Positions 4,504 through 42,703 of a DNA stretch of 64,000 bases are shown in pieces. The position numbers were made by a program, and so were the translations under genes. The notes below the pieces were generated by a model. That model had not been told where the DNA came from and did not search any database. It worked only from the letters and a program-made list of their open reading frames with translations. How positions within the stretch are numbered: the stretch's first letter is position 1; each line of letters starts with the position of its first letter. The stretch lies in NCBI GenBank assembly GCA_004173475.1, contig SEBU01000005.1, positions 1-64,000 of the forward strand. Direction: 5' to 3'. The stretch comes from Gammaproteobacteria bacterium. Lineage in GTDB: Bacteria > Pseudomonadota > Gammaproteobacteria > Pseudomonadales > Cellvibrionaceae.

Positions 4504-5805
4504 ATGCTCCTCAAAAAAGAACTCGGGGTTATTGAAAACTCGTTTTATGAAGCCAGCATTCAGCGCCCTGCCACCTCACCTCCGCTGGCCGAACGCACTA
4601 GTACAGATGTGTGCGTTGTCGGCGGTGGCTATACGGGTATTTCATCGGCAATTGAGTTAGCGGAGCGGGGATACTCCGTCGTGTTGCTGGAGGCTCAACG
4701 TATTGGCTGGGGCGCTTCCGGTCGCAATGGTGGTCAGGTAATTGTCGGGTTTGGCGCAGAAGGTGAAGAAGCTATTGCCAAGCAACTTTCAGCCGACGAT
4801 GCCAGGCGAGCGTGGGACATCTCGGTGGAAGGCATGCAACTGTTAAAAGACCGCATTACCAACTACAAAATTGATTGCGACTACACACCCGGTTACCTGA
4901 ACCTTGCAGTAAAGGCTGGCAAGGTACCGGATCTACGCAAGTGGTACGACACTGTTACCCAAACCTATGGCTACCCACTGCAGTGGATCGAACCCGATGA
5001 AATAGGAAAGTGGATCGCCAGCCCGCGTTTTCATTCCGGCGTTTATGACGATAAGTCGGGTCACATTCATCCATTAAAATATTGTCTCGTCCTCGCAGAA
5101 GTTGCGCGATCAAAAGGTGTGAGGATTTTTGAAAATTCCGCGGTATACGCTGTGGAGCGCGGTGAGCGACCCGTCGTTAAAACTGCGCAGGGCGAACTAA
5201 ACTGTCGATTCCTCGTACTAGCCGGGAATGTATACATCGGAGAGTATGGCGAAATTGCCTCCGATATTTGCGGGAAAATTATGCCTGTAGGAACCTACAT
5301 CATCGCCACCGAACCCATGGATCAAGGTCGTGCTGATGCACTAATTCCTTCACGCGCGGCAGTGACTGACACCAATTTTGTGCTGGACTATTTTCGCTTG
5401 AGCGCCGATAACCGCCTTTTATTTGGAGCCGGTGAAAGTTACAGCGGCACCACGCCCCGCAACTTGATCGCTAATATGCGCAGCAAAATGCTGACCGTGT
5501 TTCCGCAACTGGCCGATTTAAGTATCGAACACTCATGGGGCGGTTTTGTGGATTTGACGATGAATAAAGCCCCGCATTTTGGCCGATTGGGAAACAATAT
5601 TTATTACCTGCAAGGATTTTCCGGCCACGGAATCGCAAGCACAGGTATAGCGGGAAAATTAGTGGCCGAAGTGATTGCAGGGCAAGCTGAGCGATTCGAT
5701 CTTTTCGCTCGACTCAAACACCACACCTTTCCCGGCGGCACTTTGTTGCGCACTCCCCTGTTGGTTTTAGGGATGATGTATTACCAATTACGCGATTTAC
5801 TTTAA
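4504..5805 (+). CDS. FAD-dependent amine oxidase, PuuB/OrdL-like (DAO family)
   Basis: A 433-residue flavoprotein of the D-amino-acid oxidase fold. Residues about 36-70 carry the FAD-binding motif VVGGGYTGISSAIELAERG with the acidic residue of beta-strand 2 in LLEAQRIGWGASGRNGGQ, the signature of gamma-glutamylputrescine oxidase and related OrdL proteins; FAD contacts recur near the C-terminus (GFSGHGIASTGIAGK). The ATG follows a strong AGGAGG, 10 bases after the homospermidine synthase stop, so the two form an operon. This suggests oxidation of a polyamine or its derivative, but the exact substrate is inference. The last 9 bases overlap the convergent esterase gene. Confidence 0.85.
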   Translation: MLLKKELGVIENSFYEASIQRPATSPPLAERTSTDVCVVGGGYTGISSAIELAERGYSVVLLEAQRIGWGASGRNGGQVIVGFGAEGEEAIAKQLSADDARRAWDISVEGMQLLKDRITNYKIDCDYTPGYLNLAVKAGKVPDLRKWYDTVTQTYGYPLQWIEPDEIGKWIASPRFHSGVYDDKSGHIHPLKYCLVLAEVARSKGVRIFENSAVYAVERGERPVVKTAQGELNCRFLVLAGNVYIGEYGEIASDICGKIMPVGTYIIATEPMDQGRADALIPSRAAVTDTNFVLDYFRLSADNRLLFGAGESYSGTTPRNLIANMRSKMLTVFPQLADLSIEHSWGGFVDLTMNKAPHFGRLGNNIYYLQGFSGHGIASTGIAGKLVAEVIAGQAERFDLFARLKHHTFPGGTLLRTPLLVLGMMYYQLRDLL

Positions 5806-6711
5806 TTCACAGCACAACTTATTTTGTTTCATCCACAACTCCAAAGCCTGGGTCCAACTAGAAATAGTACCCTGCCCTTGCACCATGCCTACGCCATGAA
5901 TATTGCTTTGGTAGATGTGAAGTTCTGACTGCTTGTTAAACTTCTGCACTTCGTTGAAAAACATAAGGCTGTTGGCGATTGGGACAGTTTCGTCCGCAAT
6001 GCCATGGAACATAAATATCGGTGGAGTGTCCTGCTTGACCTGATATTGAAGCGAATTTTCACGCACCAATGTCTGGTCGGGATGGCCGCCGAGATAATTC
6101 TTTCGAGTCCCCGCGTGTGAATTCTCGCCTTCCAATGTGATAACCGGATATCCCAACACAGCAAAATCGGGACGCGCACTCACATGGCGTAGCGGGTCAG
6201 TTTCATCAACAGCGAAATCGGACCGGGTGACTACACTAGCGGCAAGATGACCACCTGCCGAAAAACCTACCACGCCGACTTTATTAGGGTTGAGATTCCA
6301 AGCCGCCGCATTGTCACGCACCAGCCGAACCGCTCGTAGCCCATCTAATAAAGTTGCAGGAAAACCATATTCTTTCAGACGATACTTCACCACAAACGCT
6401 GCAATACCTCTGGTATTTAACCAGCGGGCCAGGTCGGCACCTTCATTATCCATCGACAAACGCATGTAGCCTCCACCTGGGAAAATAAGTGTGGATGCAC
6501 CGTTGGCGATTTCAGCCTCAGGCCAAAAAGGGATAAGTGATGGATTATCAACCGAATGAACTCGTTGATCTTTAATCTCCTCGCGATCAGGAGCAACCAG
6601 CGGCTTTTCGGGCCACAAATGTAATGGCGCTTGTGGTTTAATCACGGCAATCGAGCCTCTTAGTTCGGTTGAAGAAAGGGGCAATATAATAGAAGGACGC
6701 TGGCAGAGCAC
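5797..6711 (-). CDS. Alpha/beta hydrolase, xylan-esterase-like (BD-FAE/Aes type); start uncertain
   Basis: A serine esterase of about 300 residues. The oxyanion motif is FPGGGY, the nucleophile elbow GFSAGGH, the acid lies in FHGIADETVP and the histidine in SNIHGVGM, as in acetyl-esterase and feruloyl-esterase-like families that often process plant cell-wall sugars. Relatives usually begin with a signal peptide. Here the only in-frame start is a GTG (6711) without a Shine-Dalgarno, while an ATG at 6718 with a well-placed GGAG is in a different frame and stops after 26 codons. The N-terminus may therefore be frameshifted; the catalytic body is intact. It is convergent with and overlaps the FAD oxidase by 9 bases. 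Confidence 0.75.
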   Translation of the reverse strand: MLCQRPSIILPLSSTELRGSIAVIKPQAPLHLWPEKPLVAPDREEIKDQRVHSVDNPSLIPFWPEAEIANGASTLIFPGGGYMRLSMDNEGADLARWLNTRGIAAFVVKYRLKEYGFPATLLDGLRAVRLVRDNAAAWNLNPNKVGVVGFSAGGHLAASVVTRSDFAVDETDPLRHVSARPDFAVLGYPVITLEGENSHAGTRKNYLGGHPDQTLVRENSLQYQVKQDTPPIFMFHGIADETVPIANSLMFFNEVQKFNKQSELHIYQSNIHGVGMVQGQGTISSWTQALELWMKQNKLCCELK

Positions 6712-6764
6712 GTCGCATTACGAATTCTCCGCACTCTCAAATGCTCTTGATATGAGATATAGAA

Positions 6765-7124
6765 TCAATTCGGCAAAGAGTCTTGGTGATCCCACCAATG
6801 ATTTTGCGACCATTCCACTTGGGTTGGATCAGCCGCTCGAAGAAGCATTTGCCCTGCCGCCAACTCGTAAGGTAACAGGGTGTCTTTGATGGCGGACCAC
6901 ATGTGATTTGCGTCATCTGCCACGTAAGTTCTGACAACGGTTAATTCATCTGAAAGCATTTGTTCTGCGGTTAATTCAAGGGCCACCCAATCTTGTACCT
7001 GGTGATACAAGCCCTGACTCAGCGCAGACTTGGTATTGTCATCCCCAAGCTCAAGCAGATAATCGGGCGCTTTTCCACCCGTAGATTGAGCTGTAAATAC
7101 ATGCGAATTTGTCAGGTTTTTCAT
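6765..7124 (-). CDS. Hypothetical protein
   Basis: A soluble, acidic protein of 119 residues that I do not recognise. The start at ATG 7124 (MKNLTNSHVFT) is chosen because GGAGAAG lies just upstream; an ATG 10 codons earlier lacks such a site. It has no signal peptide, membrane segment or Cys pairs, and contains several Trp residues (DWVAL, MWSAI, WSQNHWWDH). It is divergent from leuS across 146 bases and lies upstream of the esterase on the same strand. Confidence 0.6.
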   Translation of the reverse strand: MKNLTNSHVFTAQSTGGKAPDYLLELGDDNTKSALSQGLYHQVQDWVALELTAEQMLSDELTVVRTYVADDANHMWSAIKDTLLPYELAAGQMLLRAADPTQVEWSQNHWWDHQDSLPN

Positions 7125-36039: not shown

Positions 36040-39009
36040 ATGAATTTTGATTTCAGCCTGGTTGCCCTGATTGGCATTAGCTACCTTCTGCTGCTCTTCG
36101 GGATAGCCTACGTCACCGAGCGCGGCTGGATTCCAGAACGCATAACGACGCATCCGATTACCTATATTCTTTCACTAGGAATTTTTGCGAGCGCCTGGGC
36201 GTTTTACGGCGTTATCGATTTAGCGTTCCAGTTCGGCTATGGCGCCCTTGCTTATTATCTTGGAACCGGTGCCTTGTTTTTATTTGCACCTGTCGCACTC
36301 GCACCGCTGGCGGAGCTAGCACGCAGACATCAGGTTCACTCACTCGCTGACTTACTAGTCTTTCGTTATCACAGCAACACCGTTGGTGCGCTTACTACCC
36401 TCTGCATGTTGCTCGGCATAATGCCATTGATGGCTCTGCAAATTCAGGCAATCGCGGACACCATGCATATTCTGGTTGTTAGCGGCAGTGGCAGCCCATC
36501 CCTGACTGTTGCAGATGGCCTCTCCTTTAAAGATGTGATGGCGCTTTGCTACTGCGCCATTCTCGCCCTGTTTACCATTTTGTTCGGCTCTAACCGCGAC
36601 CAACATCGCGGCTTGATTACTGCCATGGCGTTTGAAAGCATGCTTAAAGTGTGTGCCATGTTTGCAGTGGGAATGGTGTCAGTATTTGGTGTATTCCACG
36701 GCATAGACGGCCTCAACGAATGGCTCGCGGATCATCCTGAAAACCTCGCTTTATTGCATACACCCATTCAGGACGGCTCATCACACACCCTCTTACTGGT
36801 GTTCGTGGCTACCGCAGTGACTATGCCGCACATATTTCACCTCGGTTTGGCAGAAAACCCGCTCATGCGCAATTCACGGACTTTGACTTGGGCATTCCCC
36901 CTGTTCCTACTGTTACTCGCCCTGCCAATATTCCCTATTCTCTGGGCCGGTTCTGAACTCGCCGTACCGCTGGATCCGCAGTACTTTACCCTCGGCGTGC
37001 CTATTCTTCTTAATTCGCCCACGCTCACGGTGCTTGCCTTTATTGGCGGATTATCAGCCGCGACCGGAGCAATGATTATCATCACTCTCGCGCTGGCAAC
37101 GATGGTGATGAATCACTGGCTATTACCGAGTTTGCGGCTCGCGGCGCGTAAAGATCTTTACAGCCAATTATTATGGATACGCAGGGCGCTGATTGCGGCT
37201 ATCTTCCTAGGGGGCTATTTCTTTTATTGGGTCCTCAATAATCGCTTCAGCCTCACTGATCTCGCATTTGCTGCCTTCATCGAGACACTTCAGTTTCTAC
37301 CTGGAACCTTTGCGATAATTTTCTGGAGCCCCGGGAATCGTCGCGGCTTGATTGCTGGACTGATAGTAGGTACGACAATATGGTTTATTGGCTTGCTCTT
37401 ACCCATTTTGACCGGCATTAAACTGCTCCATATCCCCTTTTCCGAATTTTACATCCCGGTCGGCAATGAATATTGGAATAGTATTACGCTGTTTTCACTC
37501 GGTCTAAACACGACCATCTTTATTGTTGTTTCTTTAGCGACCCAACAATCTGAGGAGGAGCAATACAGCGCTGACCTCTGTGCCGCAGACGAACTAAGTC
37601 ATCCTGTGCGCCAAGCCTTGGACGTCCATTCGGCCGCGGAATTTAAAGACCGTCTAGCCAAACCGCTCGGTAAAGTAACTGCCAGCCGCGAGGTTGACAA
37701 CGCGCTCAAGCAGCTCGATCTCAGCATCAGTGAGCGCCGTCCTTACGCGTTGCGTCGTTTACGCGATCAGCTTGAGGGCAATCTATCGGCATTGATGGGG
37801 ATTCACGTTGCCAGTGAAATTATGGATGCGCACTTGCCGTTTAAGGTCGCTGATTCACGCGAAACCCTAGATATCAATCTCATCGAAAATCGCCTCGCCC
37901 AATATCAAAATCACCTAACAGGTATGGCTGCTGAGCTGAATAACTTGCGCCTTTATCATCGCAAAACCTTGCAGGAACTCCCCATGGCGGTGTGCTCACT
38001 TGGGCCAGACACTGAGATCCTCATGTGGAACCACGCCATGTCAGCGCTCACCCATACCCCCAGCGAAGAGGTGACGGGCTCTTACCTGGATGGTATTGGC
38101 GAACCCTGGCGCACCCTTCTCACCGACTTCAGTAAGAGCCGTGAGATGCACTACTACCGTCGCGAAATCACGCTGGACGGTCGCCCCCATTGGATTAGCT
38201 TACATAAAGCGACGATCGAGGGCCCGATTACGGAGGGCGTATTCGATCAGGTGATGATGTTGGAAGACGTGACCGAGACCCAACTATTGGAACAAGAGCT
38301 GGTTCACAGCGAACGCTTGGCATCCGTAGGCCGCCTTGCAGCCGGTGTTGCACATGAAATTGGCAATCCCATAACCGGTATCGCCTGCCTGGCACAAAAC
38401 TTACGCTACGACTCAGACAATCCCGAAGTGCTTGAAACGGCGGAGCAAATCCTCAGCCAAACAGACCGTGTGACGCGCATCGTGCAATCGCTCGTGGGCT
38501 TTTCCCATACTGGTCACACTGCTAAAAGCGAATTCCAAGCCGTAATCTTGCGCGACTGCGCTCAAGAGGCTATAAGCTTGTTGTCTTTGCAAAAGGACAA
38601 ACAACAGGTGCGCTTTGTTAATGAAATCGCCCAAAATGCCGTTATAGCAGGTGATGCCCAGCGTATGATTCAAGTATTCATAAACCTGCTCTCAAATGCG
38701 CGCGACGCAAGCCCTGAGAATGGTCTCGTCATACTTGCCAGCAGCGAAGATGAATATTCGATAGACATCAGTGTCACGGATGAAGGCAGCGGTATCCCGC
38801 CGGAAATCCAGGATCAGATTCTGGAACCTTTTTTTACCACCAAGGAACCCGGTGAAGGCACAGGCCTTGGCTTGGCTATGGTTTACAGCATCGTGGAAGA
38901 TCACGGCGGTTTGCTGGAAATTATCAGCCCGGTAGATACAGAGCGTAATCGCGGTGCGCAATTCATCGTCAAATTACCACGCCATGTTGATTCTTTGGCC
39001 GATATTTGA
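36040..39009 (+). CDS. cbrA: Sensor histidine kinase CbrA with transporter-like domain
   Basis: A 989-residue kinase with the CbrA architecture: an N-terminal sodium-solute-symporter-like (SLC5) domain of about 13 helices (1-500), a linker, a PAS domain (about 645-750, LPMAVCSLGPDTEILMWNHAM), HisKA with VAHEIGNPITGIACLAQNL, and an ATPase domain (N-box NLLSNARDAS, G2 EGTGLGLAMVYSIV). In Pseudomonas CbrA (about 983 residues) and CbrB control carbon/nitrogen balance, histidine use and the small RNA CrcZ. The gene order around it (dksA-gluQ-cbrA-cbrB-pcnB) is the same here. Confidence 0.93.
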   Translation: MNFDFSLVALIGISYLLLLFGIAYVTERGWIPERITTHPITYILSLGIFASAWAFYGVIDLAFQFGYGALAYYLGTGALFLFAPVALAPLAELARRHQVHSLADLLVFRYHSNTVGALTTLCMLLGIMPLMALQIQAIADTMHILVVSGSGSPSLTVADGLSFKDVMALCYCAILALFTILFGSNRDQHRGLITAMAFESMLKVCAMFAVGMVSVFGVFHGIDGLNEWLADHPENLALLHTPIQDGSSHTLLLVFVATAVTMPHIFHLGLAENPLMRNSRTLTWAFPLFLLLLALPIFPILWAGSELAVPLDPQYFTLGVPILLNSPTLTVLAFIGGLSAATGAMIIITLALATMVMNHWLLPSLRLAARKDLYSQLLWIRRALIAAIFLGGYFFYWVLNNRFSLTDLAFAAFIETLQFLPGTFAIIFWSPGNRRGLIAGLIVGTTIWFIGLLLPILTGIKLLHIPFSEFYIPVGNEYWNSITLFSLGLNTTIFIVVSLATQQSEEEQYSADLCAADELSHPVRQALDVHSAAEFKDRLAKPLGKVTASREVDNALKQLDLSISERRPYALRRLRDQLEGNLSALMGIHVASEIMDAHLPFKVADSRETLDINLIENRLAQYQNHLTGMAAELNNLRLYHRKTLQELPMAVCSLGPDTEILMWNHAMSALTHTPSEEVTGSYLDGIGEPWRTLLTDFSKSREMHYYRREITLDGRPHWISLHKATIEGPITEGVFDQVMMLEDVTETQLLEQELVHSERLASVGRLAAGVAHEIGNPITGIACLAQNLRYDSDNPEVLETAEQILSQTDRVTRIVQSLVGFSHTGHTAKSEFQAVILRDCAQEAISLLSLQKDKQQVRFVNEIAQNAVIAGDAQRMIQVFINLLSNARDASPENGLVILASSEDEYSIDISVTDEGSGIPPEIQDQILEPFFTTKEPGEGTGLGLAMVYSIVEDHGGLLEIISPVDTERNRGAQFIVKLPRHVDSLADI

Positions 39010-39105: not shown

Positions 39106-40524
39106 ATGAGTAAGATTCTGATTGTTGAAGATGAAAGCATTATTCGTAATGCGTTGCGCAAATTGTTAGAGCGCAATCAGTATGAGGTCAACGAAGCTCC
39201 CTCGGTTAAGGAAGCCACATCCAAATTTAACCTCAAAGATTTCGACCTCATTATTAGCGACCTGCGACTACCTGGCGCCCCAGGTACAGACCTTATTAAA
39301 CTCGCCGGTGACACACCAGTATTGATTATGACCAGCTATGCGAGCCTGCGCTCTGCAGTAGATTCCATGCGCATGGGCGCGGTGGACTATGTTGCCAAAC
39401 CTTTCGATCACGATGAAATGGTTAACGCCGTTAAGCGCGTGATAGGAAAAGCCAAAGCCGCCAATAAGGTGACTGCTCAGGGCCTTACCGCGAGCAAGGC
39501 GATCGCCGGCATGATCGGCAGTAGCGATGTCATGCAAGACCTCTATAATCGCATCCACAAAGTCGCTCCAACCGCCGCGACAGTTCTTATTCACGGAGAG
39601 ACGGGGACTGGTAAAGAACTGGTCGCCCGCGCGCTACATGAAGAGAGCCAGCGCAATAATCACCTGATGATCTCCGTAAACTGCGCTGCGATTCCTGACA
39701 CCCTGATTGAATCCGAACTCTTTGGTCACGAAAAAGGCGCCTTCACCGGCGCAGCAACTAACCGTGAAGGTCTGGTTGCTGCTGCTGACGGTGGAACTTT
39801 ATTCCTGGATGAAATTGGTGAGCTGCCACTTGAAGCACAAGCGCGTCTGCTACGTGTATTGCAAGAAGGCGAGGTTCGCCCTTTAGGTTCCGTTGAGTCT
39901 CGCAAGGTGGATGTTCGTCTTGTCGCCGCAACCCATAGAGATCTACGCAAATTAGCTAAAGAAGGCAAATTTCGTGAGGATCTTTATTTCCGTATTAATG
40001 TGGTCCAACTCAGCCTCCCTCCGTTGCGTGAACGGGGAAGAGACATTATCAACATCGCAGAATCCTTGTTACAACGTTATTGCACCCAGTTTGGTAAACC
40101 GCAACTGCGGCTATCAACCGATGCTGTCGATGCGATAATGGCTTACGCTTGGCCCGGCAATGTTCGGGAGCTTGAAAATGCTATGCAACGCGCCGTTATA
40201 CTTTGTGAAGATAGCAATGAAATTAGCTCTCTGTTGTTATCCATAGATACGGATTCATCAACGTCGCCTGACACCTTAGACACAGGCAATACGATTTTCG
40301 GACAGCCACGCACTTTAGGTGGCTCTTTACCGCGCACGGCTAAAGAGCCGGAAGATCTCTCCCTCGAAGATTATTTCCAACGGTTCGTGATTGAGCATCA
40401 GGACTCTATGAGCGAAACGGAGTTGGCGAGAAAGCTGGGCGTAAGTCGTAAATGCCTATGGGAAAGACGTCAGCGGCTCGGCATTCCGCGCACTAAAAAT
40501 AGTGCATCCAGCCTCGCTAAATAA
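39106..40524 (+). CDS. cbrB: sigma-54-dependent response regulator CbrB
   Basis: A 472-residue NtrC-family activator (Pseudomonas CbrB about 478). The receiver domain (1-120) has IVEDES and phospho-acceptor Asp in [10 protein letters not shown]; the AAA+ domain (about 140-370) has Walker A GETGTGKE, the sigma-54-contact loop GAFTGA (residues 211-216), Walker [13 protein letters not shown] and an R-finger region; the Fis-type helix-turn-helix is at the C-terminus ([23 protein letters not shown]). It should activate the sigma-54 promoter found 275 bases downstream, through the TGTTAC-N14-GTAACA site there. Confidence 0.95.
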
Positions 40525-40638
40525 ATACCGTTATATTCGAAGTTGATTAAATTGTCGCATGGACGCTAGGTTAGGCCTGACATCCACGTTACTCAATTTA
40601 CAGGCTTTCGAAGCCAATCGTTGAATGACATGCCAGTC

Positions 40639-40723
40639 CGTTACCCCCAGTCACGAAACTGTTACCTCCCGAAAAAGTGTTACCGCCCCCAAGTTAAGTA
40701 ACAAACTTCCAGAATTTTGTAAC
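40639..40723 (+). promoter_or_regulatory. Cluster of CbrB-type half-sites upstream of the small RNA
   Basis: Besides the perfect palindrome at 40678-40703, the region holds CGTTAC (40639-40644), TGTTAC (40660-40665) and TTGTAAC (40717-40723, read as an inverted half-site). The half-sites are spaced roughly 12-16 bases apart on a segment 75-160 bases before the -24 box, where enhancer sites for sigma-54 activators lie. Binding is inferred from the known Pseudomonas CbrB site. Confidence 0.7.
40678..40703 (+). promoter_or_regulatory. CbrB upstream activating sequence TGTTAC-N14-GTAACA
   Basis: TGTTAC (40678-40683), exactly 14 bases, then GTAACA (40698-40703). This matches the CbrB binding site defined at Pseudomonas crcZ-type promoters. 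It lies 97 bases before the -24 element. Seen directly in the sequence; function follows from the presence of cbrB next door. Confidence 0.82.
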
Positions 40724-40797
40724 CCTTAGAAATAACGAAAAGTTATAAAGGATTAGCAAAAATAATTAAGTTGATGAAAGCAAAGGATATTTTTTTA

Positions 40798-40813
40798 TTG
40801 GCACAGGAAGTGC
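40798..40813 (+). promoter_or_regulatory. sigma-54 (RpoN) promoter of the CrcZ-like RNA
   Basis: TTGGCAC-AGGAA-GTGC has GG at 40800-40801 and GC at 40812-40813, the exact 12-base step of -24/-12 promoters; only the first base of the -12 TTGC differs (G for T). The predicted start is near 40825. A 7-bp inverted repeat AGTGCTC/GAGCACT (40809-40815 and 40822-40828) spans the -12 box and start site. Confidence 0.82.
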
Positions 40814-40828
40814 TCTATGTCGAGCACT

Positions 40829-40963
40829 AAAAACAATAAATAATAATAAAAACGACATAATAAAAATAACAACAATAAATAATAAAAAATTGACAATATT
40901 TATAATAACAACAACAAACAATAAAAAACTGACACTTTTAATAACAACAAAAAACAATAATAA
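40829..40963 (+). repeat. CA-motif repeat block inside the CrcZ-like RNA
   Basis: Four A-rich units (40829-40852, 40859-40889, 40904-40928, 40940-40963) separated by short GACA-containing spacers. The junction AATAAAAA(A)n-TGACA/CGACA recurs at 40845, 40881 and 40920, giving a period of about 36-39 bases, as if the block grew by tandem duplication of a CA-motif unit. Confidence 0.75.
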
Positions 40964-41153
40964 GCAGAAAATATAAAAATTAGATTTAGCTAGACAGATT
41001 GAGCAAGACCAGCGCTAGAAGACAAAAGCAATAAGATACTAGAATAAAGCGGAAAACCAAGTGGCAGCGGATGGGATAGCAAGCGAGTTGGAAATGGGCA
41101 CGGAAGCACCCCATTGAATGCCTGAATGAGCACCTAAGTTGTGCTACCCTCCC

Positions 41154-41187
41154 AACGGGAAAGCCAAAAGCTTTCCCGTTTTGCTTT
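41154..41187 (+). terminator. Terminator of the CrcZ-like RNA
   Basis: AACGGGAAAGC (41154-41164) and GCTTTCCCGTT (41170-41180) form a perfect 11-bp stem with loop CAAAA followed by TTGCTTT. It separates the RNA from pcnB. Confidence 0.9.
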
Positions 41188-41350
41188 AAAGATTATTCAT
41201 TATCTGTTTCGCCTACCGTCATTCCAGAAAGCGAAATAATCATTGAGCACTCCAATTTCCCCTGTCAGATGGCTTCTGCTACACTCCGCCCACTATAAGG
41301 CCTGATTCCACAATCCCGTCTCGGCCAACCTCCATTGCCAAATTGATATT

Positions 41351-42703
41351 ATGCTGAAACGTTTGTTAAATTTTATCTCTACCCGCCAATCCACCCCTAA
41401 GTCTGGGGGCCCGTTGGTGATACCGCGTGATCAGCACAACATCTCCCGTAAGAATATAAGCCCCGCTGCTATCAAGTTAATTAAGCAAATCGAAGATGCC
41501 GGTTTTAACGCTTATTTAGTTGGCGGAGGTGTACGGGATTTACTGCTTGGCAATCATCCTAAAGATTTCGATATAGCGACCGACGCCAAACCGGAAGAGG
41601 TGAAGAGAATTTTTCGTAGCGCACGCATCATCGGTCGGCGGTTCCAGATTGTGCATGTACGAATTGGACGCGAAATTTTTGAAGTAACGACCTTTCGCGG
41701 ACACCATGAAGATGCAGCTCATACAAAGTCCAAAACTGACGAAGGTATGCTTCTACGCGATAACGTTTACGGCACTATTGAAACAGATGCGGCTAGACGA
41801 GACTTTACCGTAAACGCGCTTTACTACACGCTTCGTGATTTCTCCGTACATGACTACTGCAATGGTCTCCAAGACATCAAAACGCGCACCTTGCGCATTA
41901 TTGGCGATCCTGCGACCCGCTATAAGGAAGATCCGGTACGCATGCTTCGGGCGGTGCGTTTCGCTGGAAAACTTGGCTTTACGATCGAACCTAATACTGC
42001 CAAACCTATTTTTGAATTAAGTAGTTTGCTAGGCAACATCTCTGAGGCCCGTTTGTTTGAAGAGGTGCTCAAATTGTTCCTGGGTGGGTCTGCCACCGCG
42101 ACTTACCATTTGTTGCGAGAATACGATCTATTGAAACAACTGTTTCCTGGCGCAGATGCAGCGATAAAAAACGGGGATGAATTGGGTTCAGCTCTAATCG
42201 AGCGCTCAATGATCAATACCGACAAGCGCATTCGCAGTGAAAAAACAGTGACGCCCGCGTTTATCTACGCCGCCTTGTTGTGGCCTGCCTTACAGCAAGA
42301 ACAAAAACGCCTGGCAGAAAAACTGCCACCGCAAGCAGCCTATCTCGAGGCTTGCCAAAACGTCGTTAGTCAGCAACTGGCGCGCACATCTATTCCAAAA
42401 CGCTTCTTAATTCCCATGCGTGAGATTTGGGATTTGCAACACCGTTTACCCGGTCGTCAAGGCATGCGTGCATTGCGTTTATTGGATCATCCAAGGTTTC
42501 GAGCTGCTTACGATTTTCTTTTGATGCGTGAAGATGCCGGTGAAAAATTAAATGGATTGGGAAGTTGGTGGACGAGCTTCCAATCTGCTAATGATGAAGA
42601 TCGAGAGCAAATGGTGAAAGACCTCGGAAAGCAAAATACAACCAGCCGTCCGCGTCGACGTCGCCCTCGTAAGCCCAAAGACGCAGCGCCCAGCGCCGAA
42701 TAA
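41351..42703 (+). CDS. pcnB: Poly(A) polymerase I
   Basis: PcnB adds poly(A) tails to RNA 3' ends and promotes decay. The 450-residue protein has the nucleotidyltransferase core: AYLVGGGVRDLLLGNHPKDFDIATDA (GG and D-x-D catalytic aspartates), RRDFTVNALYY, and the RNA-binding helix region YKEDPVRMLRAVRFAGKLGF. The C-terminus is Arg/Lys-rich (TSRPRRRRPRKPKD), as in E. coli PcnB. It is followed by folK two bases later, the same order as in Pseudomonas. Confidence 0.96.
   Translation: MLKRLLNFISTRQSTPKSGGPLVIPRDQHNISRKNISPAAIKLIKQIEDAGFNAYLVGGGVRDLLLGNHPKDFDIATDAKPEEVKRIFRSARIIGRRFQIVHVRIGREIFEVTTFRGHHEDAAHTKSKTDEGMLLRDNVYGTIETDAARRDFTVNALYYTLRDFSVHDYCNGLQDIKTRTLRIIGDPATRYKEDPVRMLRAVRFAGKLGFTIEPNTAKPIFELSSLLGNISEARLFEEVLKLFLGGSATATYHLLREYDLLKQLFPGADAAIKNGDELGSALIERSMINTDKRIRSEKTVTPAFIYAALLWPALQQEQKRLAEKLPPQAAYLEACQNVVSQQLARTSIPKRFLIPMREIWDLQHRLPGRQGMRALRLLDHPRFRAAYDFLLMREDAGEKLNGLGSWWTSFQSANDEDREQMVKDLGKQNTTSRPRRRRPRKPKDAAPSAE

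What the first reader, a model, noticed from the sequence alone, without database searches (positions are those of the whole stretch)
40525..41350. A CrcZ-type small RNA locus outside Pseudomonas, completing a CbrAB-CrcZ module
The cbrB-pcnB gap contains, in the right order and spacing, a CbrB binding palindrome, a sigma-54 promoter, an A-rich block made almost wholly of AAnAAnAA Hfq/Crc motifs, and a strong terminator, giving a predicted RNA of about 363 nt. This is the exact position and design of Pseudomonas crcZ, yet the host appears to be a Cellvibrio-like bacterium. To my knowledge CrcZ/CrcY/CrcX have been described only in Pseudomonas and close relatives, so this may be an undescribed homologue that controls sugar-versus-preferred-carbon choice in a polysaccharide degrader.
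Basis: partly seen in the sequence, partly recalled or inferred. Interest (0 to 1): 0.93.

Follow-up and report, generated by a model that had tools for sequence, protein, structure and literature searches.

The report
CrcZ-type regulatory RNA outside Pseudomonas
A probable polysaccharide-degrading relative of Pseudomonas carries, in the same place and with the same switch, a small RNA like Pseudomonas CrcZ that probably soaks up the Hfq/Crc repressor to free less-favoured food genes, and the module is spread over many families instead of one.

Summary
The cbrB-pcnB gap carries CbrB half-sites (F1-R1-R2), a sigma-54 promoter, a 157-nt A-rich block of AAN triplets and a terminator, predicting an RNA of about 363 nt. 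Rfam's CrcZ model does not recognise it (12 bits; cut-off 95), although it finds 4 of 5 Pseudomonadaceae control loci. Yet position, CbrA (49% identity), CbrB (65%), half-site spacing and promoter match Pseudomonas crcZ, and the genome encodes Crc, Hfq and RpoN. The strict signature occurs in 91 of 100 sampled family genomes (97 with four -12 variants and two moved copies) and in 30 of 40 chosen loci from 33 other families of the order; 0 of 2,800 shuffles. CbrB relatives read outside the order lack it (0 of 14). A 2022 review calls CbrAB exclusive to Pseudomonas and Azotobacter. New details: tandem ~37-nt A-rich modules; a UUGGA-type motif plus ANGGA hairpin (site types that bind Rsm proteins in P. 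aeruginosa CrcZ) in 12 of 13 genus members; two to four tandem copies in some other families. Function is inferred: no transcript data, and no CA-motif enrichment at start codons in an 845-kb sample.

The parts
36040..39009 (+). cbrA, sensor kinase with N-terminal transporter-like region
   Evidence: 49% identity end to end (484/995) with the CbrA-position protein of Pseudomonas fildesensis; HisKA and HATPase domains
39106..40524 (+). cbrB, sigma-54-dependent response regulator
   Evidence: 65% identity with P. fildesensis CbrB; receiver and sigma-54 activation domains; match in 100 of 100 family genomes
40660..40665 (+). extra forward CbrB-type half-site TGTTAC
   Evidence: sequence
40678..40683 (+). 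CbrB subsite F1 (TGTTAC)
   Evidence: 6/6 in 85 of 91 family loci
40698..40703 (+). CbrB subsite R1 (GTAACA)
   Evidence: 6/6 in 82 of 91 family loci
40719..40724 (+). CbrB subsite R2 (GTAACC)
   Evidence: at least 5/6 in 90 of 91 family loci
40799..40813 (+). sigma-54 promoter TGGCACAGGAAGTGC
   Evidence: conserved in the family
40826..41188 (+). predicted small RNA of the CrcZ type, about 363 nt (start inferred from promoter spacing)
   Evidence: in L138, L139 and L163 the Rfam CrcZ match starts 27 nt after the first base of the promoter, the offset that gives 40826
40829..40985 (+). A-rich Hfq/Crc block, tandem modules spaced 36-39 nt, made of AAN triplets
41088..41092 (+). UUGGA motif
41093..41115 (+). 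hairpin AAUGGG(CACGGAAGCAC)CCCAUU presenting ACGGA (ANGGA), candidate CsrA/Rsm site
   Evidence: ANGGA hairpin in 12 of 13 genus members
41154..41188 (+). Rho-independent terminator with interrupted U-tract
   Evidence: two compensated pairs among 13 genus members
41351..42703 (+). pcnB, downstream gene
   Evidence: TIGR01942, 540 bits, cut-off 306

Best explanation
The gap encodes a CrcZ-type small RNA, a diverged homologue of Pseudomonas crcZ. When carbon is limiting, CbrA/CbrB with sigma-54 RNA polymerase switches it on from F1-R1-R2. Its A-rich modules bind the distal face of Hfq together with Crc at several places along one RNA and so titrate the Hfq/Crc repressor from catabolic mRNAs. 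Shown here: anatomy, conservation, synteny, presence of CbrAB, RpoN, Hfq and Crc. Inferred: transcription, binding, titration, and which substrates are repressed.
For: Order gluQRS-cbrA-cbrB-RNA-pcnB-folK. CbrA 49% and CbrB 65% identical to Pseudomonas. Crc: best solved-structure match 4jg3, 'Catabolite repression control protein', E 3.5e-75; match in 98 of 100 family genomes, one of them only a 37% hit. Hfq: 1u1s, E 2.6e-39. RpoN. F1/R1/R2 at about -122/-102/-80 from the promoter in 13 of 13 genus, 83 of 91 family and 3 of 3 f20 (Pseudomonadaceae by their Rfam CrcZ hits) loci; 0 of 591 shifted windows. Signature in 91 of 100 family genomes, controls zero; six more by variant or moved loci. 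One AAN run is 21 nt, longer than the 18-mer with six ARN motifs used in the Hfq/Crc structure (PMC6422490 passages). First 150 nt mostly unpaired in 13 genus RNAs (mean 0.81-0.90). A TTGGAGAGGGTTTGC-like element is shared by 41 of 78 family RNAs outside the genus and 3 of 3 f20 RNAs (9 of 2,420 shuffles).
Against: Rfam CrcZ not met: 12.1 bits against 95. The TTGGAGAGGG element is absent as such in the window's own genus (0 of 13) and in 27 RNAs of other families; the link to the genus is only by intermediate-looking forms in genera g20 and g25. No enrichment of AANAANAA around 676 predicted starts in 845 kb of this genome; only 4 had four or more AAN triplets. Covariation is weak: 2 of 32 pairs, both in the terminator. 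No transcript or binding data. Three of 100 family genomes show no locus, one because the contig ends; 10 of 40 chosen order loci miss the strict rule.
Confidence: 0.84

Rival explanations
1. The RNA is a homologue of CrcZ by descent but in this family mainly titrates Hfq (or CsrA/Rsm) and has little to do with Crc-type catabolite repression of sugars.
For: No CA-motif enrichment at starts in the sample. The A-block of the genus is denser (13 RNAs, median 12 CA motifs, A fraction 0.48) than that of the one f20 RNA that could be measured (6; 0.34). UUGGA-type motif plus ANGGA hairpin in 12 of 13 genus members and three CsrA genes.
Against: crc match in 98 of 100 family genomes; Hfq core nearly identical to P. 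aeruginosa Hfq; promoter wiring to CbrAB unchanged.
Confidence: 0.25
2. The region is a long 5' leader or attenuator of pcnB and not a separate small RNA.
For: It lies just upstream of pcnB and stays with pcnB when cbrB is separated from it (2 genomes).
Against: Terminator at 41154-41180, about 170 nt before the pcnB start; CbrB half-sites and a sigma-54 promoter in front; the Pseudomonas counterpart at this place is a known separate RNA (Rfam hit).
Confidence: 0.05
3. The resemblance is convergent: an unrelated A-rich RNA fell under CbrB control.
For: No Rfam match; outside the A-runs no alignable similarity of this genus's RNA to Pseudomonas CrcZ was found.
Against: Same gap, same half-site and promoter spacing, and a TTGGAGAGG element shared by other genera of the family and f20.
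Confidence: 0.06
4. Chance A-rich spacer with a chance promoter.
For: The gap is AT-rich.
Against: 91 of 100 family genomes, 30 of 40 chosen order loci, zero in the controls made.
Confidence: 0.01

Closest known systems
CrcZ of Pseudomonas (Rfam RF01675)
   Same: Gap after cbrB and before pcnB, CbrB F1-R1-R2 sites, sigma-54 promoter, several CA/ARN motifs, length (363 nt here; Rfam match spans 375-401 nt in four control loci).
   Different: 12 bits against a cut-off of 95; A-rich motifs form a nearly continuous tandem of ~37-nt modules; the 3' half has a sequence of its own in this genus.
CrcY and CrcX of Pseudomonas and Azotobacter
   Same: Similar RNAs that antagonise Crc/Hfq, with CbrB control (PMC8871633 and PMC6292655, passages).
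   Different: Those genes lie at other chromosomal places (recalled); no second perfect CbrB site was found in this genome. In some other families extra copies stand in tandem in the same gap.
RsmY/RsmZ-type CsrA sponges (recalled)
   Same: ANGGA in a hairpin loop.

Membership tests
Rfam RF01675 CrcZ | covariance model score at or above 95 bits | tested here: not met
   12.1 and 10.9 bits in the locus; 0 of 10 genome matches over cut-off; control: 4 of 5 Pseudomonadaceae loci hit with 309-361 bits (the miss is a MAG, L167), 0 of 15 others
CrcZ-type RNA (functional type) | gene directly downstream of cbrB | tested here: met
CrcZ-type RNA (functional type) | CbrB subsites F1, R1, R2 spaced 12-16 nt | tested here: met
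   N14 and N15 here; conservation; definition from PMC6296734 passages
CrcZ-type RNA (functional type) | sigma-54 GG-N10-GC promoter and rpoN in the genome | tested here: met
CrcZ-type RNA (functional type) | several A-rich CA/ARN Hfq motifs | tested here: met
CrcZ-type RNA (functional type) | Hfq and Crc encoded in the same genome | tested here: met
CrcZ-type RNA (functional type) | CbrB- and RpoN-dependent transcript | not testable with these tools
   no expression data at hand
CrcZ-type RNA (functional type) | binds Hfq/Crc and relieves repression of target mRNAs | not testable with these tools
   needs binding and reporter assays; an indirect start-codon motif test gave no enrichment
CrcZ-type RNA (functional type) | Rsm-type UUGGA and ANGGA sites as in P. 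aeruginosa CrcZ | tested here: inconclusive
   UUGGA-type motif (UUGGA, CUGGA or UGGGA) near an ANGGA hairpin in 12 of 13 genus and 33 of 78 other family RNAs, 10 of 1,820 shuffles; but only 1 of 3 f20 and 0 of 27 other RNAs; binding untested; motif chosen after looking at the sequences
CbrAB two-component system | CbrA with transporter-like N-terminus fused to a histidine kinase, next to CbrB | tested here: met
   end-to-end alignment with Pseudomonas CbrA, 49%; CbrB 65%; Pfam reports only the kinase domains, no transporter domain, at the threshold used
CsrA/RsmA sponge RNA | several GGA hairpins that titrate CsrA | tested here: inconclusive
   one ANGGA hairpin and one UUGGA

The most novel reading that the evidence does not exclude
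A CbrAB-CrcZ module arose near the base of the (GTDB) order that holds Pseudomonas and Cellvibrionaceae and is that order's general carbon-limitation switch. In Cellvibrionaceae its RNA is a two-sided sponge: tandem ARN modules load rows of Hfq/Crc, and a UUGGA/ANGGA element binds CsrA-type proteins, so one RNA ties catabolite repression of polysaccharide use to the Csr/Rsm network. Other families raise the dose by tandem copies (two to four) in the same gap.
Probability: 0.35. Interest if true: 0.75.

Novelty: new variant of a known kind. Interest (0 to 1): 0.62.

Why it matters
A 2022 review and a 2018 paper state that CbrAB, with crcZ behind it, is exclusive to Pseudomonas and Azotobacter (PMC8871633, PMC6296734; passages). 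Here cbrB is in 100 of 100 and the RNA locus in 97 of 100 sampled genomes of another family, and the strict signature is in loci from 27 of 33 further families sampled, Pseudomonadaceae being one of them. That changes the picture of how the system arose and gives a concrete, testable candidate for catabolite repression in Cellvibrio-like polysaccharide degraders; a 2024 review on hemicellulase regulation contains neither 'Crc' nor 'Hfq' (PMC10766802, term search and passages). Rfam's model missed all seven loci of the family that were tested (the window and six relatives), so annotation that relies on it will not see the RNA.

Tried and rejected
Rfam at gathering and permissive: no CrcZ over cut-off; the best permissive hit is an lncRNA model (ST7-OT4_3) on the other strand, taken as chance. 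RF01675 over the whole genome gave 10 weak matches, none over cut-off, and rings in 9 of 14 control genomes, so it is not informative. The single genome-contig scan used AAA+ motifs and returned mostly NtrC paralogs: 75 of 80 loci. Of the other five, Gilvimarinus, Dasania and P. fildesensis showed the RNA locus, L166 ends 355 nt after cbrB, and L167 (a Pseudomonadaceae MAG) showed nothing. The 75 paralogs were reused as negative controls, plus strand only. A start-codon CA-motif search for targets found no enrichment (simple ORF caller, 845 kb of 4.73 Mb). A one-mismatch CbrB site near crc is not clearly above background (15 places against 11 in the reversed-pattern control). Three paper searches were not followed beyond their listings.

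My strict criterion misses real loci: the four sampled g29 genomes have GT instead of GC at -12, and two genomes have the locus next to pcnB but away from cbrB. They are counted apart. The terminator finder used for RNA length failed on 40 of 121 RNAs, which were left out of the length and composition medians; only one of three f20 RNAs entered that comparison.

Full report
WHAT IS THERE. The gap between cbrB (39106-40524) and pcnB (41351-42703) contains TGTTAC at 40660 and 40678, GTAACA at 40698, GTAACC at 40719, a sigma-54 promoter TGGCACAGGAAGTGC at 40799-40813, an A-rich block at 40829-40985 (102 A of 157), and a terminator at 41154-41180. The predicted RNA runs from about 40826 to 41188, 363 nt. 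It has no long open frame: the longest stop-free stretch in its three forward frames is 49 codons. The F1-N14-R1 pair without mismatch occurs at one place in the 4.73-Mb genome, here.

THE NEIGHBOURHOOD. gluQRS, cbrA, cbrB, the RNA, pcnB and folK follow each other (the ORF before gluQRS looks like dksA and one further on like panB, from recall). CbrA is 49% identical end to end and CbrB 65% identical to the proteins of Pseudomonas fildesensis. Elsewhere in the genome are crc (best solved-structure match 4jg3, Catabolite repression control protein, E 3.5e-75), hfq (1u1s, E 2.6e-39), rpoN and three csrA genes.

HOST. The family of the window contains G089, whose contig of 142,866 bases matches the Gilvimarinus gilvus contig in length and in the place of cbrB; Gilvimarinus is Cellvibrionaceae. 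The genus itself could not be named with the tools; Cellvibrio is likely. 'Order' below is the order of the genome tool (GTDB); NCBI taxonomy puts Cellvibrionaceae in Cellvibrionales, so by NCBI the gap to Pseudomonas is wider. Family f20 of the tool is called Pseudomonadaceae here because its three loci read match Rfam CrcZ with 309-361 bits.

SPREAD IN THE FAMILY. CbrB matches in 100 of 100 sampled family genomes, 32 genera. All 100 gaps were fetched. A strict rule (TGGCAY-N6-TGC followed within 320 nt by at least three non-overlapping CA motifs in the gap) is met by 91 of 100. Controls: 0 of 100 reverse strands, 0 of 2,000 shuffles. Of the nine misses, four (the four sampled genomes of genus g29) have the sites and the A-block but GT at -12, two have the locus 2.4-2.6 kb from cbrB still next to pcnB, one contig ends after 415 nt, and two (G030, G071) show nothing in the stretches read. 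A Crc match at E 1e-40 or better is in 98 of 100; the two misses are genomes of 68% and 84% completeness, and in one further genome (G076) the only match is 37% identical and may be a paralog.

SPREAD IN THE ORDER AND CLASS. CbrB at E 1e-140 or better is in 204 of 293 order genomes, 13 of them of the own family. I chose 40 loci from 33 other families, all with places listed in that answer, so this is not a random sample: 30 of 40 meet the strict rule, in 27 of 33 families (26 of 32 without Pseudomonadaceae); 0 of 40 reverse strands, 0 of 800 shuffles. Of the ten misses one contig ends 365 nt after cbrB; G107, G138 and G274 show a promoter with two CA motifs, G200 has a -12 variant, G105 has CA motifs without the promoter, and G108, G215, G298 and G335 show no unit of promoter and CA motifs in the stretch read. 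In the class sample 18 of 274 genomes have such a CbrB, 15 of them outside the order; 14 of those 15 were read over stretches of 2.1-4.9 kb, and none shows the RNA or pcnB behind cbrB; the same holds for one order genome read with them, G133. So the RNA seems younger than this type of regulator and specific to the order (inference). Matches to Crc at E 1e-70 are in 132 of 293 order genomes; f20 scores only between about 7e-72 and 1.5e-74 there, and family f26, with no listed CbrB match, scores the same, so at that level Crc proper and related exonucleases cannot be told apart and I draw no conclusion from it. Negative controls: 0 of 75 NtrC-type loci (589 kb, plus strand) and nothing in 800 kb of stretches of the same genome, both strands.

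PROMOTER. F1, R1 and R2 stand at about -122, -102 and -80 from the promoter start. All three score at least 5/6 in 13 of 13 genus loci and 83 of 91 family loci; among 28 loci of other families with enough upstream sequence the number is 8, of which 3 are the three Pseudomonadaceae; 0 of 591 shifted windows. So outside these two families the half-sites are less regular. The arrangement is that reported for P. putida crcZ and crcY (PMC6296734, passages).

RNA BODY. The A-block is a tandem with spacings of 39 and 36 nt and runs of AAN triplets of 12 to 21 nt. The Hfq/Crc complex was solved with an 18-mer of six ARN-type motifs, and a beads-on-a-string model is proposed for CrcZ (PMC6422490, passages); the window RNA fits that model more fully than the one Pseudomonadaceae RNA measured. 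Beyond the A-block, 41 of 78 family RNAs outside the genus and 3 of 3 Pseudomonadaceae RNAs share a TTGGAGAGGGTTTGC-like element (12 of 15 or better; 9 of 2,420 shuffles); the window's genus does not (0 of 13), nor do 27 RNAs from other families. Genera g20 and g25 carry forms that look intermediate. A UUGGA-type motif (UUGGA, CUGGA or UGGGA) within 60 nt of a hairpin with ANGGA in its loop is in 12 of 13 genus members and 33 of 78 other family RNAs, 10 of 1,820 shuffles; but in only 1 of 3 Pseudomonadaceae RNAs (3 of 60 shuffles) and 0 of 27 others. Within the genus the stems differ (AUGGG/CCCAU, UUGCC/GGCAA) while ANGGA stays. P. aeruginosa CrcZ was reported to bind RsmN through UUGGA and RsmA through AGGGA (PMC6061880, passages). 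The motif here was chosen after seeing the sequences, and the f20 RNAs have two or three UUGGA-type candidates, so the match to that site is not certain.

WHAT SPEAKS AGAINST. The Rfam CrcZ model fails (12.1 against 95 bits), though it finds 4 of 5 Pseudomonadaceae loci with 309-361 bits and none of 15 others. AANAANAA is not enriched at starts of 676 predicted genes in 845 kb, so the target list is unknown. Covariation is weak: 2 of 32 pairs, both in the terminator. There is no expression evidence.

NOVELTY. The held library (open-access PMC) gave no paper with CrcZ and Cellvibrio, CbrAB and Saccharophagus (17), CrcZ and Marinobacter (35), CbrB and Cellvibrio (36), or CrcZ with Gammaproteobacteria, conserved and synteny (37). 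Two papers hold CrcZ and Halomonas and two hold CbrA and Marinobacter, seen as listings only. A search for at least two of CbrAB, CrcZ and Cellvibrionaceae gave 49 papers; the ten listed, ranked with more terms first, have no Cellvibrionaceae. A review and a paper call the system exclusive to Pseudomonas and Azotobacter. Subscription journals are largely not covered.

VERDICT. A conserved, CbrB/sigma-54-wired A-rich RNA gene that most likely works like CrcZ and descends from the same ancestor, but is not a member of RF01675 as modelled. The wide spread over the order is the main new point; the Rsm-type element and the tandem copies are leads.

Noticed in passing
L162 (G200, family f38), cbrB-pcnB gap, reverse strand: Four GG-N10-GC promoter-like sites with CbrB-type half-sites in front of each in one 2.1-kb gap: apparently four tandem CrcZ-type units.
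   Followed up: partly
L168 (Dasania sp. GY-MA-18), 5446-6900: Two tandem units, each with its own F1-R1-R2 set, sigma-54 promoter and three CA motifs. Similar doubles (two promoters, each with at least three CA motifs) in G110, G127, G135, G143, G165, G172.
   Followed up: partly
L057, L061, L062, L063 (genus g29): The four sampled genomes of the genus have GT instead of GC at -12 of the otherwise conserved promoter.
   Followed up: no
L116-L123, about 60 nt upstream of crc: A GTAACA half-site at -60 from the crc start in 8 of 8 genus members read; in the window's genome it forms a one-mismatch F-N14-R site. Possible CbrB feedback on crc, or chance.
   Followed up: partly
window 40810-40827: Inverted repeat GTGCTC-N6-GAGCAC across the -12 element and the predicted start; conservation not tested.
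   Followed up: no
L244-L249, L251-L258 (genomes of the class outside the order): CbrB relatives (55-61% identity) outside the order show neither pcnB nor an A-rich RNA behind them in the stretches read, so the regulator may be older than the RNA.
   Followed up: partly
own genome C42:330030-331301, minus strand: An ORF that looks like glgC (from recall) has AATAAGAAGAAA just before its predicted start, a candidate Hfq/Crc target.
   Followed up: no
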